Origin: Gemmataceae bacterium
GTDB taxonomy: Bacteria; Planctomycetota; Planctomycetia; Gemmatales; Gemmataceae
DNA length: 64,000 nucleotides
Assembly: GCA_025055795.1 (NCBI GenBank)
Contig: JANWVV010000006.1
Span: forward strand, 1-64,000
Direction: 5' to 3'
A program made the position numbers and the translations under genes. Under the pieces are notes generated by a model, which made no database searches, was not told the origin of the DNA, and saw only the letters and a list, made by a program, of their open reading frames with translations. Positions 50,268 to 57,352 of the stretch are shown piece after piece; position 1 is the stretch's first letter; every line of letters starts with the position of its first letter.

Positions 50268-50741
50268 ATGCGTGCGATTGCATTAGGAGTTGCAACAGCA
50301 GCGTTTGTTGGCTGGCTAGGCTGGTTAACTTATGCAGCTTTGACCAAGGAGCGTGGCCCGATTTTATCCCGCAGTCTGATCGCCGTGGCCACCCATCCCG
50401 TGGTGGCTGAGCTAAGGGAGGATGCCACAGTCGCTGGGGCACCCGCTACGGAAGTTGTTGTGCATCAAGCACTAAGTGATCGGGGCCCACCACCAGAAAG
50501 CCGGATCGAGGTGGTTAATCTGCCACGGGCCCGTTTGTGGGACGGCCCGGGTGAATACCTCCTGCTGTTAGTACCAGTACCAGCCACCGAGGGAATGGCC
50601 CCTGCGGGGAGTTCTCCTCGCTACCGCTTGGTCAGCCAGCCCCGTTCCGCCGGCTACGATCCCTATGACCCGCCCCCCGTGATTTATCGCTGGAACGAAT
50701 CACTCCGCCGTCAGTGGCAGGCCCTGTTTTCCCCTCCCTAA
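50268..50741 (+). CDS. Hypothetical protein with N-terminal TM segment
   Basis: 157 aa; hydrophobic start (IALGVATAAFVGWLGWLTYAAL), coding-like composition, no recognised family. Confidence 0.6.
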   Translation: MRAIALGVATAAFVGWLGWLTYAALTKERGPILSRSLIAVATHPVVAELREDATVAGAPATEVVVHQALSDRGPPPESRIEVVNLPRARLWDGPGEYLLLLVPVPATEGMAPAGSSPRYRLVSQPRSAGYDPYDPPPVIYRWNESLRRQWQALFSPP

Positions 50742-51276
50742 AGACAACAGCGGGAAATCCCCAACAATCCGTCTAGCAAAGATTGATAATCAGCAGCCTA
50801 AGGGGATTGCTGCAGTAGACACCTGACAAACGGTTGCCGAGCTAGTTCGGTGTTACGGGAGCTGTGTTCAGGCGGCTATCGTAACACTCAGCGTGTATCG
50901 AACGCAAGCAGAAGCAGAACTCTCGGTCATGTTTGGGGTGACAGAAACGATTGCGTTTGTTCGTATCATCACGCCAGATTTCAGGTTCGATAATGAATGG
51001 ATGTTAAATCAGACAAATCACGGCAGAGGTACTGACGCCGCTATGCCCTTGCATTAAGATAAGAAGTACGCTCCCTGAGAAATGTCTGATGCGGGCGTTG
51101 ATTAGGACGCTGTAGAATGCGTTAACGTCGGTCATAACTGTTTCTATTAATGAGCAGGAGCTAACAATTATCACTCCGTGTTAGTATGGCAAAGTGATCC
51201 AGGCACCTACTGGCGATCAGAATAGGTTAGGGAAATCGCGATAGGAGCTAGTAGTAATTCAACATATGGATTGTTG

Positions 51277-51349
51277 GCTCGCGTAGCTCAATTGGCAGAG
51301 CAGCGGTTTTGTAAACCGCAGGTTGTGGGTTCGAGTCCCACCGCGAGCT
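51277..51349 (+). tRNA. tRNA-Thr (anticodon TGT)
   Basis: GCTCGCG/CGCGAGC acceptor, anticodon arm GCGGT-TTTGTAA-ACCGC, T arm GTGGG-TTCGAGT-CCCAC. Confidence 0.96.
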
Positions 51350-51569
51350 CTTGAGAAAGTTGTAGCAAGTGTTATACAAACATAAGTATGTTCCAAGTTC
51401 AGACAGCAAATGAACGGCTAGGGAAAACAAGTACCGATTCATGTTCTGCTTCTGGCCTTGGAGTCTGCTTATGGTCAACCATTAGATGAATACCCTATTC
51501 CAGGCAGTGAACGCCAGACTGTCGGCCAACCCAACCACCCCTTGAGAAATATCGATACGTGAGTAGAGG

Positions 51570-54500
51570 CTGAACTGACAATAATGACATGTTATGACAG
51601 TTACTGTCGTCCTGTTCTGTTAATCTTAAGTATGAAGATTTCTGGCATCTCATCTCATGAGAATTATATTGCTGAGATAGAATTATCCAATTATATACAA
51701 TATTTATGATATGTATAAAATTTAAGTCATAATTCCATTCTCATTATTTATGGTCATGGTGAATAGTTAAGCAATAAATATAACATAATATCGTTTATTC
51801 CATATATCAATACATATTTTCCGGTATTGAATAAAAATATATAAGTAGTTATAGTTTAGTAAAATATAAACTCGGCTAATTTGCGCAATAGTTCACATAC
51901 CTATACCAATTAGGAATGGATACAGATCTAGGAGAGCCATGGTCGGTCTATACCCCTCGTGATATTGAGCCAAAGAAACTTTTCAATCAATATTTATTTA
52001 GTATTTTAGAGTATTATAGAGATAACTTATATTATCTGTCATAGATCGTCAATTCAATCATTGTATCATTAGCGATTAGACTAAGAATGTGGTCTATTGA
52101 CGAAATTATAGCATGAATTATTTATAATCATTTGTACTGATCGTTTCGGTCAATCATTGTAGGCTCAATCCAAACAGGTGGTTGGCCTCATGGGCCTCGT
52201 CTAGCCCAACCTCTTGCACGAAACAGCACAATACTGACATAAATCGGGCTGAATTGCTCAGGCACAAAAGCCAAACAGACAAATGGCCCTCAGGGTCTTC
52301 CCTGCTTTGCTTGCAGAAATGAGAAATCACATGGCAGGCACAATTGCTTGCGTGATTTGCTTAGAATTTAAGCTTAACTGATGCATTGCTTACCGTGCTT
52401 GTTCTAATTCGCATGCACTTATGAATCAGTGAACAATCTAGGTATTACACTAATAACCTTATTATGATTTAGATTAAATCGTTGAATTACCTCCAGTATT
52501 GTTACAAACTTGCTTTTTCAATTATGGTTTGGATCGCCTATGTGGCAAATAGTGCAACTTGGTTACAAGTCAGAGAAAATTTAGTAATAGCTTGTGCAAA
52601 CTTTTCTGATTTACCTTGTACAATCAAGCTTTGTATACCTTTGCGATTGCCTGCCTAGATAGGTCATTATTCACTCTAAAAAATAAGAATATTTATTTGA
52701 ATGATTGGCACGGCTCGAATTAAGTGGAGTAGATGCATAAACGAAAACTCGTAGTTCAGCCAAGCTATAGCTAATTGCAAAGTTTGCTGTTGTGTGTCCT
52801 TGGTGATCTTGACGGTACGTCCTTGAAACGGTCCTGAAAGGGCTGCAATAAATTTTTTTAGCTCGCGTAACTAAACGCACCAATGCCTGCAATGTGGCCT
52901 CGCTAGTCGACTCCTCGCTCGTAAATACTTGTGCTATCTGCCGACCAATTCCTCTCATGAGTCGTAGCCTGTCGATTTAAAGCAAGTACTTGGCCAAAGC
53001 TCTCCGTCGCCAGGTTCATATAGCACCCAATGCCTTGACTTGTTCCTCGTAGCTAGCTTTAGAGAGATTGAACTTGCGAATACGAATAGTGACCGCTTCA
53101 ATATTTTCGACTCGAGGTTGAACACAACTCGTGACACAAACCGTTGTAACACTCGGGAATCTCCCGAAGTACGCGGTCATATAAAGCGTGGAGAGATTCC
53201 AGTAACCCGTACAGCGTGGGATTAGTCCATACCTATGAGGTTTGCCCATTAAGTTTCGTAACACAGCCTCGTCTTTCGTGTAATACTGTTTCGAGCCCTG
53301 AGCAGCAAAGTGTTCCTAGTACATTTCGTGGGAGAAGACTAGCTCTTCACCGCTGTCCGTTAGCAGATTGGCTATCGCCAACTTCCCGGATAAACTTGGC
53401 TGAGTCCAATAAAAAGCCATTTTCTTGGCACCTCTGACGGAGGATGTGCCAAGCGAATGTGCGGGTAAAGCTAGTGCAACCGCTTAAACGGGTCTATTAG
53501 GCTAATTAGTTTAGCAAGTCGAGTTGCACATCGCAGGGAGCTTGCAGACACTTGTTCTCTTCGCGTTTGAGAATATGTTCAGTAAATAACCTTAATAATT
53601 GACTGCTATTCTTAGGCAGTCCACCTTTGCTCTCAATTCCAGTTGAATAAGCAACCAGAGTTGTAACAGGTTGCACACCTATTCCCAAAGTGCCCTGAGC
53701 TTTTTAAGTGTGTGGTAGAAGGGCTGACCTTCACACTGTCCAGTCGGAGCGAAATGGCATGTGATGAACTCTAGATTTTGTCTTCGGTTGAATAGTCCAG
53801 ACTGAATATTGGCAATCGAAAACGCTCCAGAGCCAAATCCATACAGCAAGTGAGAAATAAAGGCACATCTGGGTATTCGCTAGACAGAGCCTCAATATCT
53901 CGAAAACATCGCTCCTGCAAGTCGGCCCGGGCCTTATTCAAACCGTCCAGCAACACATACCACTTCTGAGGATGGAGCTGTTGTGCCAAGGCATGCTCTT
54001 GTTCTTGACAAGCCTGACATAATGATTGTTTCAAGTCACCTCGTTAATATCGTAGCTCCACATAAAAAGGCAAATGCTCGAACTTCCGCGGGTCGTTCTG
54101 AAACTGTTACGCCTTTTCAAAGGTGAAGTACTCTAGCGGCGTCGTCTTACCTGCGCCAGCGTCTGCGGCTAGGATAAGGCGCTTTACCTCTCGAAATAAG
54201 TCGTGAACAGGATCGTACCCAGAGATGCCACCAAGTTGAGGAGGTTCCATTTGCTCATCAACGGATACGACACCTTCCTCGCTTGAGGATATTACATCAT
54301 CAGAACTTTCTGTTGGTTTGTCAGTGGCTCCGTATAAACGAGTTTAAGGGTATTTCCCCAGCGGTGAGTTGTATAAGCATGTCTTCTTGGAAAAGTTCGC
54401 CAGCTTCCAGCACTAACCATCGGCGCATATGTTACTTTCAACGTTGCCATACACTTTGAAAATACTCCCGTCGCGGCCCAATAAAAAGTACACTTCAAAG

Positions 54501-56110
54501 TACACCTCCTAGTTCGTGAGCATACTCGTCTATGGCCCACTGCATGCACGACAACAGGTCTATTAGAGCTAGCACCAAGTCCCTAAGTGGTGAATTGACC
54601 AATTCCTTTTGTTTGATGAACCGTGAGCGATCTCATTTTGCAAATGCCACAAATTTGCACAGACCTGAGCAATACGCCTCGGTGCTAGCCAGAAACTGAA
54701 ACCCAATTCTCCACCAAATCATGTAAGGTGGGATGATAAACAGGTTTAATCCAAACTAGAGGCGGCCGGTGTAATCTAGTCAAACGTTCGGGGTCGCAAC
54801 TTGCCAATAATAGATGTCTTAAATAGGGCTGAATTGTAGCAAACAAACGGTCAGGGACTACAAAACGTCGACGGCTCTTGCTTAAAAAACCTACGATGCC
54901 TCGTTGAAAATTTATGAAAGAGCTAGGTGGAGTTTTTCCGTCTAATGTGGGACTTAACAAGGTCTGTACAAACAGGGTAACGACAGTCTCGAGGCCGTGT
55001 GTCATCACATCTTCAACCAATCGGGGGGTGACACTCTCGCTGGATCATCTCACACAACACGCTCTCCAAGACTATTGTGCCGAGCATAAACTCGCCGCCT
55101 ATTACCTTAACTATCCGATCGCGTATACTCATCTGTTTATCGATTTAACGAAAGATCATCAAGGATATACTAGACATTTCTCAAAATATTAATTATATAT
55201 AGTATATTATCATATGATCTGATAACAATAGTATTTATAAAATTCCCAAATTTATAAAAATATATCATATTTATAATAACACATTAACTAAAGTAGTCTC
55301 ATAAGGCAATTTTTCTGATGGACAAGCACTGTATCACTGTCGTTTCGGCGGCGAACTGCAGGATCGAGGCACCCAATATGTAATGCGTTGTGAACTCACA
55401 AAATCAAGTCATAATTCATTTAGTATATGATATTAAGAATGTCTATAATACAGCTATTGAAGATAGTTACATTCCATTAGGACCAGAAATATGAGTAGGT
55501 TAAGAAATATGAATACAAAAGAATATGATTTACTGTAAACTATTCAAAATATCTAACAGCTTCATTTAGATGATAAAATTTTATTGAGTATGCAGTTGTC
55601 AAACTATAATGAGTGTTATTCATATCCGGCATTCTTTAATCCTCCAGACAGGGGCATGAGTGTCTCGGATTTAAACACGGTCATTTTACGCCTAACTCAG
55701 TAAAGTGGAGGAATTATTCCTTAGTCTACTATAAGATTACATATACTATAAACAATAATCTTGATATATTAATATCCCATCAAAATATATAAATTATTTT
55801 ATTAATATAGTAATAGTAATAAGTATATACTCGGTCCAACGATACAGAAAGCAATGCGGAATCGGACACTATGGGGATCTGGCACTACACGGCACGGTGC
55901 GATATATCGTACATCAACGTGTGAGTGTTGAAGCAGATGCGGCCAAAAAGTCTTAAGTAAGCCGTGTTTTAGATGAAAACCGTTTTGACTCCATTCTGCC
56001 TTATCGCTCACTCAGGCGAATTATGCCCTGGTTTCAGGTTAGTTATTGTTCTGACCATCGGCCCTTTCGCTTTACATCGGATGTAACGGTTCCAAGGATT
56101 ACGGGGACAA
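51570..56110. other. AT-rich, gene-poor island downstream of tRNA-Thr
   Basis: Long stretches of very low GC (e.g. 51640-51860, 55180-55290, 55720-55830) and no ORF above 111 aa, against a GC-rich coding-dense background. Borders are approximate. Confidence 0.75.
53290..54250 (-). pseudogene. Decayed NACHT (STAND) NTPase
   Basis: Minus-strand reading from 54250: MEPPQLGGISGYDPVHDLFREVKRLILAADAGAGKTTPLEYFTFEKA*QFQNDPRKFEHLPFYVELRY*RGDLKQSL...YVLLDGLNKARADLQERC...YPDVPLFLTCCMDLALERF...DYSTEDKI* (Walker A and B). Other frames continue with EFITCHFAPTG..., then GGLPKNSSQLLRLFTEHILKREE (53506-53688), then EELVFSHEMY*EHFAAQ near 53318. At least three stops and three frame changes. Confidence 0.8.
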
Positions 56111-56131
56111 ATTAGTCGTGCGGGTTGCACC

Positions 56132-57352
56132 TTGATGTCCAGACCGGATTGTAACGTTAGGCCCAGGATCATTACTCTAACTTCTGGGGAAGATATTCGC
56201 ATTGCACCGAGTGACACCATGACATTATTTGTGTGGCCAATAACCGTGGCAGCATTCGGGGGAATCGTGACGCTGACCACGGGCGGAATCGAATCACCTT
56301 CGGATGAAGCGTGCCGATCTGCTCCGTTCGGGTATCTTTACGCCCCCGCCTTCAGTTTACAGGTGGAATTGCGGCAACCTTTGAGCGTATACACGCCTCA
56401 GGCAGGCGACGTCCTGCTTATGAGCGATACCGATTGTTTCTGGACTCTGATGTACCGTTTCGCACTGACCGGTGCACCGGGTCATGCTGGGATCGTGGTT
56501 CCGCTTCCCGATGGTCGCCTAGGCCTACTGGAGGCCGGATACAACGAAACCTTGTGGACACGCATCACGCCCCTAGCCGAACGCTTACCCGAATACCCCG
56601 GTTTTATCTGGGTTCGCCAACGGCAGATGCCGCTGACGCTCGAACAGCAACAGCGACTGATGGAATTTGCCTTGGCCGCGGCTGATCTACCCTATGCTAC
56701 GGGACGGGTGCTTCTGCAGGTCACACCATTTCGCAGCCGGGGTCCTTTACGGACCTATGTGCTAGGCCGACCGCGCGGAGCCGGTCGGCGGTATCAGTGT
56801 GCCGAAGCGGTGATCGAGGCCTTGGTCTATGCCGGTGTCCGCGACGGCCGGACTGCCCGTCCCGCGGCAACCTATCCGCAAGACCTGTTCTACGACCGCT
56901 CGTGGAACCGCTATTTGGATCGGCATCCGCCCTTGGGACCCGACTGGAACCCTCCCGCCTTATGGACACCCATTCCTAGTGTTGCTCTCAAGGGCCGAAC
57001 ACGTAAGGCTCTGGCCGCTGCTGGCCTGTTGCCAATCGCATCGCTAACGTCTGAAAAGGCGGGTCAGCCGGATGCTCTCGGCCTGTCTCACCAGTCAGCA
57101 GGGACCAATTCAGCAACTGCCAGTGTCGTTCGAAGCTGCGGTAGCGACGGAAGCGGTGGCTGCGGCACTGCAGCGATCCGGACAAGCGGGGTCAACCAGC
57201 TCCAGCCAGGCACGGGCGTCGTGGAGCAGGCGAAGGCGCAGTTCGTCGTGCCTTTGCTCGGCGCGGAAGCGCCAGCGGTCGCACTCGTGGAGCAGCCGCT
57301 CAAGCGCCTGGGTCTGTTCGATCGTCCACCCCGCTTGGGTCGCCGCCGCTAG
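56132..57352 (+). CDS. YiiX/YaeF-like permuted papain-like (NlpC/P60-related) protein
   Basis: 406 aa; GDVLLMSDTDCFW...GAPGHAGIVVPLPDGRLGLLEAGYNE (His first) and RRYQCAEAVIEALVYAGV (Cys later), the permuted order. True start may be near 56219; C-terminal 80 aa may not be genuine. Confidence 0.7.
   Translation: MMSRPDCNVRPRIITLTSGEDIRIAPSDTMTLFVWPITVAAFGGIVTLTTGGIESPSDEACRSAPFGYLYAPAFSLQVELRQPLSVYTPQAGDVLLMSDTDCFWTLMYRFALTGAPGHAGIVVPLPDGRLGLLEAGYNETLWTRITPLAERLPEYPGFIWVRQRQMPLTLEQQQRLMEFALAAADLPYATGRVLLQVTPFRSRGPLRTYVLGRPRGAGRRYQCAEAVIEALVYAGVRDGRTARPAATYPQDLFYDRSWNRYLDRHPPLGPDWNPPALWTPIPSVALKGRTRKALAAAGLLPIASLTSEKAGQPDALGLSHQSAGTNSATASVVRSCGSDGSGGCGTAAIRTSGVNQLQPGTGVVEQAKAQFVVPLLGAEAPAVALVEQPLKRLGLFDRPPRLGRRR

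What the first reader, a model, noticed from the sequence alone, without database searches (positions are those of the whole stretch)
53290..54250. Remnant NACHT/STAND NTPase (possible defense or NLR-like gene) with several in-frame Gln-to-stop lesions
Seen directly: the ORF track shows only small unrelated-looking ORFs, but joined minus-strand frames read as one NACHT module in the right order. The blocks are Walker A (LILAADAGAGKTTPLEYF), Walker B (YVLLDGLNKA), FLTCCMD (cf. LLTSR), STEDKI/EFI, GGLPKNSSQLLRLFTEHILKRE, and FSHEMY*EHFAAQ (cf. FxHQxxQEYFAA). Stops at 54107-54109, 54044-54046 and 53316-53318 fall where Gln (CAA/CAG) fits, i.e. C-to-T changes. Established: NACHT STAND ATPases occur in bacterial antiphage systems such as Avs. 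Inference: a horizontally acquired defense-like gene is decaying here under AT-biased mutation.
Basis: partly seen in the sequence, partly recalled or inferred. Interest (0 to 1): 0.7.

Follow-up and report, generated by a model that had tools for sequence, protein, structure and literature searches.

The report
Dead NACHT immune-type gene in planctomycete
This stretch is the broken, no longer working remains of a bacterial gene for a NACHT-type immune-sensor protein; one uninterrupted relative is known in another planctomycete, so the finding is real but is a relic of a known kind of gene rather than a new system.

Summary
On the minus strand, 52742-55042 is a pseudogene of a NACHT STAND NTPase. 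The NACHT core, read in one frame across two stops, hits PF05729 (E 4.8e-5, 23.7 bits, below the 26.7 cut-off). A frameshift-tolerant alignment to an uninterrupted 1519-aa homologue scores 762 against a shuffled maximum of 47, over 744 aligned residues at 36% identity, with 15 frameshifts and 11 stops. The same method finds no lesion in four neighbouring genes. Relatives: Thermoguttaceae SKYB5 (open frame) and Pirellulaceae KatS3mg110 (apparently damaged too), the only hits in a pattern scan of 84,980 species genomes. Architecture: helical N-terminus with a HEPN-like motif (weak), central NACHT, PPR/Frigida-like solenoid C-terminus; a bNACHT/NLR-like plan, unmatched in PADLOC. Acquisition from outside is likely but unproven; an antiphage role of the ancestor is inferred. 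Ordinary decay of a rare defence-type gene; low to moderate interest.

The parts
52742..55042 (-). Pseudogene of a NACHT STAND protein (aligns with residues 34-802 of a 1519-aa homologue); 15 frameshifts, 11 stops
   Evidence: Frameshift-aware alignment, score 762 vs shuffled maximum 47
54519..54984 (-). Remains of the helical N-terminal (putative effector) domain
   Evidence: Alignment to P0004 residues 53-202; sub-threshold HEPN_MAE_28990 hit E 0.075
54623..54640 (-). QNEIAH, aligned with RNRSSH of the G207 homologue: candidate HEPN Rx4H motif with the Arg replaced
   Evidence: Read; motif definition PMC3710099; weak
53774..54214 (-). NACHT core, readable in one frame across two stops
   Evidence: PF05729 E 4.8e-5
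54140..54166 (-). Walker A (ADAGAGKTT)
   Evidence: Conserved in both homologues
53930..53959 (-). Walker B (YVLLDGLNKA; relatives LLLDGLNEV, Glu to Lys)
53837..53857 (-). FLTCCMD, place of the sensor-1-like SR of relatives (Arg lost)
53295..53640 (-). Helical part after NACHT, up to FSHEMY*EHFAAQ; several stops
   Evidence: 34/90 and 20/44 identical to P0004 in the two segments
52742..53162 (-). Start of the C-terminal helical-repeat region; the rest is not recognisable
   Evidence: tail search negative
52161..52280 (-). Short stretch resembling the relic's own N-terminal part (54740-54850); perhaps a fragment of a second tandem copy
   Evidence: DNA score 51 vs 200-shuffle maximum 42; weak, found after the fact
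51277..51350 (+). tRNA-Thr(TGT), left border of the AT-rich stretch

Best explanation
The region is a dead gene. Its ancestor coded for a large (about 1500 aa) bacterial NLR-like STAND protein: a helical N-terminal effector (possibly a HEPN ribonuclease), a central NACHT ATPase switch, and a long PPR/Frigida-like helical-repeat C-terminus as sensor. By analogy with tested bNACHT and Avs proteins, detection of an infection signal by the C-terminus would let NACHT bind ATP and oligomerise, switching on the N-terminal effector. Here frameshifts, stops, loss of most of the solenoid and of Walker B and sensor residues exclude a working product. Shown: homology, domain order, lesions. Inferred: HEPN effector, antiphage role, acquisition from another planctomycete followed by decay.
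For: Alignment score 762 vs shuffled maximum 47, 15 frameshifts and 11 stops; NACHT E 4.8e-5; homologues at E 7.6e-50 and 1e-43 in other families; homologue P0004 has NACHT over the Pfam cut-off and helical repeats; four neighbouring genes are intact by the same method; no second copy in the genome; composition.
Against: HEPN assignment is weak: no hit for the intact homologues, sub-threshold for the relic piece, low-confidence model. The homologues do not lie among recognisable defence genes in their listed neighbourhoods. No experiment on this family. Loss in relatives could replace acquisition.
Confidence: 0.93

Rival explanations
1. The gene is intact and the broken frame comes only from assembly or sequencing errors.
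For: It is a draft genome in 267 contigs; the reads were not available.
Against: 15 frameshifts and 11 stops in 2.3 kb, the C-terminal half missing and active-site residues changed, while four neighbouring genes show none.
Confidence: 0.02
2. The region held a tandem pair of such genes, and 52161-52280 is the rest of the second copy.
For: DNA similarity score 51 vs a 200-shuffle maximum of 42; another planctomycete has two NACHT genes about 4 kb apart (G450).
Against: Only about 120 nt, picked after the fact; the intact homologues do not match this piece above shuffles.
Confidence: 0.3
3. The gene was inherited vertically and lost in nearly all relatives, rather than acquired from outside.
For: Relatives exist in other families of the same class, and one of them is also damaged.
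Against: Absent at the thresholds used from the sister genome and nearly all of 298 class genomes searched; would need many losses.
Confidence: 0.25

Closest known systems
Uncharacterised NACHT protein of MAG Thermoguttaceae bacterium SKYB5 (JANXBW010000017.1; L037:8001-12557)
   Same: Collinear over residues 34-802, 36% identical
   Different: Uninterrupted 1519 aa with a complete solenoid; the window copy is dead and truncated
NACHT gene of MAG Pirellulaceae bacterium KatS3mg110 (BPJU01000001.1; L038:8001-12486)
   Same: 212/516 aligned residues identical; same motif spacing in the N-terminus
   Different: Near-identical C-terminal tandem repeats; a stop and an out-of-frame stretch, so also damaged or misread
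bNACHT proteins, for example bNACHT25 (PMC12169576)
   Same: Effector - NACHT - C-terminal sensor plan
   Different: bNACHT25 has a PD-(D/E)XK nuclease and an NCH1 domain; neither was found in the Pfam scans here
EruA antiphage protein (NF058535)
   Same: NACHT part of the G207 homologue matches locally, E 1.2e-11, 43.6 bits
   Different: Far below the family cut-off of 1000 bits, 162 of 1318 profile positions: not a member
HEPN-STAND fusions described in PMC3710099
   Same: N-terminal putative HEPN before a STAND NTPase
   Different: HEPN is not established here; Arg of the motif is Gln in the relic

Membership tests
NACHT domain proteins (PF05729) | Profile match over the curated cut-off | tested here: inconclusive
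   Relic 23.7 bits, E 4.8e-5, cut-off 26.7; both homologues pass with 29.6 and 27.2 bits
NACHT domain proteins (PF05729) | Walker A and Walker B in order | tested here: met
   Both present; Walker B Glu replaced by Lys
Pseudogene | Multiple disabling lesions against a homologue, absent from neighbouring genes | tested here: met
bNACHT / NLR-like defence protein | Effector - NACHT - C-terminal sensor architecture | tested here: inconclusive
   NACHT and repeat C-terminus found in the homologue; effector not identified
bNACHT / NLR-like defence protein | Protection against phage | not testable with these tools
   Needs an experiment with the intact homologue
HEPN domain | Rx4-6H motif in a helical fold | tested here: inconclusive
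   RNRSSH in G207, QNEIAH in the relic; PF18737 E 0.075; model pLDDT 40
Avs (AVAST) and other PADLOC systems | Match to a PADLOC model | tested here: not met
   No NACHT-system match for relic or homologues
EruA (NF058535) | Score over the equivalog cut-off | tested here: not met
   43.6 of 1000 bits

The most novel reading that the evidence does not exclude
The relic belongs to an undescribed, rare family of planctomycete NACHT sensors (putative HEPN, NACHT, PPR-like solenoid) whose C-terminal repeat array is re-cut by recombination, as the near-identical repeats of the G207 copy suggest, and which is repeatedly gained and lost.
Probability: 0.25. Interest if true: 0.5.

Novelty: new member of a known kind. 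Interest (0 to 1): 0.27.

Why it matters
It records the loss of an NLR-like gene in a planctomycete and points to one uninterrupted homologue that could be tested. The family has no model in PADLOC, so such genes are missed by a scan with that library. For the window itself it explains an AT-rich gap as gene decay.

Tried and rejected
Pfam, PADLOC and NCBIfam scans of the three raw frames with X at stops: nothing; the full joined reading also gave no Pfam hit, the core alone does. PDB sequence searches of the joined relic and of the N-terminal profile: chance only. Phage records and viral contigs: no relative of the joined relic; the homologue meets only a local NACHT match in two Vibrio phage records. 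Structure prediction of the homologue's first 760 residues: pLDDT 40, so no fold search was made. tRNA-Thr-directed integration was considered: the repeat search of 50700-56300 gave no convincing second copy of the tRNA 3' end; no search for an integrase was made. Stop-codon recoding rejected: neighbouring genes read through with the standard code.

Full report
What was checked. The window is part of contig C234 of a 4.41 Mb draft genome in 267 contigs. Between the gene ending at 50741 and the gene starting at 56132 lies a 5.4 kb stretch, poorer in GC than the rest, with a tRNA-Thr at 51277-51350 and no long open frame. I translated the minus strand in all three frames with X at stops and joined the readable pieces by hand for searches.

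The 184-residue single-frame piece that covers the NACHT core, with two stops, matches PF05729 at E 4.8e-5. The joined 356-residue reading finds two genomes of other families of the class at E 7.6e-50 and 1e-43; a third, marginal hit in the same family as the window (E 0.008) covers the NACHT part only. Whole raw frames give no Pfam hit, so a plain scan misses this relic.

Extent and lesions. I wrote a frameshift-tolerant protein-to-DNA alignment and ran it on 50800-56200. The 1519-aa homologue P0004 (G194, one open frame) aligns from residue 34 to 802 with window 55042 to 52742: score 762, 270 of 744 residues identical, 15 frameshifts and 11 stops. Thirty shuffled versions reached at most 47, the plus strand 42. 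The 701-aa piece P0005 of G207 gives 750 against 49. The exact number of lesions depends on the gap penalties. The same method on four neighbouring genes, with sister-genome proteins, gives no stop and no frameshift. This is decay of one gene, not general noise. The remaining 700 or so residues of the solenoid have no recognisable counterpart in 51351-52760.

The stops. 53316-53318 aligns with Gln in both relatives. 54107-54109 aligns with Lys or Thr; 54044-54046 aligns with Tyr in G207 and lies at a gap edge in G194. The Gln-to-stop pattern is therefore true for one of three. Other stops align with Trp, Glu, Tyr, Lys or Arg (read). AT-biased decay is plausible from composition but is not shown by the stop codons.

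What the ancestor was. The homologue has a NACHT core over the Pfam cut-off, a PPR repeat over the NCBIfam cut-off and ELYS/Frigida-like helical repeats. The G207 copy carries near-identical tandem repeats in the same region. The N-terminus is poorly conserved; its best lead is the aligned motif RNRSSH (G207) / QNEIAH (relic) and a sub-threshold HEPN_MAE_28990 hit for the relic piece. HEPN domains are marked by an Rx4-6H motif and are known to be joined to STAND NTPases in bacteria (PMC3710099). I treat HEPN as a guess. bNACHT proteins have a C-terminal sensor, a central NACHT and an N-terminal effector (PMC12169576); I infer the same logic here.

Where it came from. A pattern scan of one genome for each of 84,980 species returned only two relatives, with names: Thermoguttaceae SKYB5 and Pirellulaceae KatS3mg110. 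That these come from hot springs is my recollection, not a tool result. The scan needs short conserved peptides and can miss divergent members. Wider homology of P0004 in planctomycetes and on cyanobacterial and other plasmids is limited to the NACHT and the region next to it. Absence from the sister genome and from nearly all of the class genomes searched favours acquisition; loss is not excluded.

Surroundings. In the sister genome the tRNA-Thr(TGT) stands with tRNA-Tyr, -Gly, -Thr(GGT) and tuf; in this genome tRNA-Gly, tRNA-Thr(GGT) and tuf lie on contig C11, and tRNA-Thr(TGT) stands alone beside the relic. The two flanks of the relic lie about 220 kb apart on opposite strands of one contig in the sister genome. 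The relic thus sits at a rearrangement point; whether it had a part in that is unknown.

Verdict. A real, well-supported pseudogene of a known kind of protein, from an unmodelled family. Interest is modest.

Noticed in passing
window 51277-51350 to 56132; L039, L040, L041: Synteny break: in the sister genome the two flanks are about 220 kb apart on opposite strands, and the tRNA-Thr(TGT)-Tyr-Gly-Thr-tuf cluster is split in this genome; tRNA-Tyr was not found beside the tuf part on C11.
   Followed up: partly
L038 10726-10955 and 10969-11518: Near-identical 93-bp and 102-bp tandem repeats inside the C-terminal repeat region of the G207 NACHT gene, which suggests recent repeat expansion in a putative sensor.
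   Followed up: partly
L038 6453-6816 and 12915-13641: Arrays of a 36-bp repeat on both sides of the G207 NACHT gene, in inverted orientation to each other.
   Followed up: no
L038 8001-12486: The G207 homologue has an in-frame stop near its N-terminus and a stretch of about 37 codons out of frame: damaged too, or misread.
   Followed up: partly
window 52161-52280: Possible fragment of a second copy of the relic's N-terminal part.
   Followed up: partly
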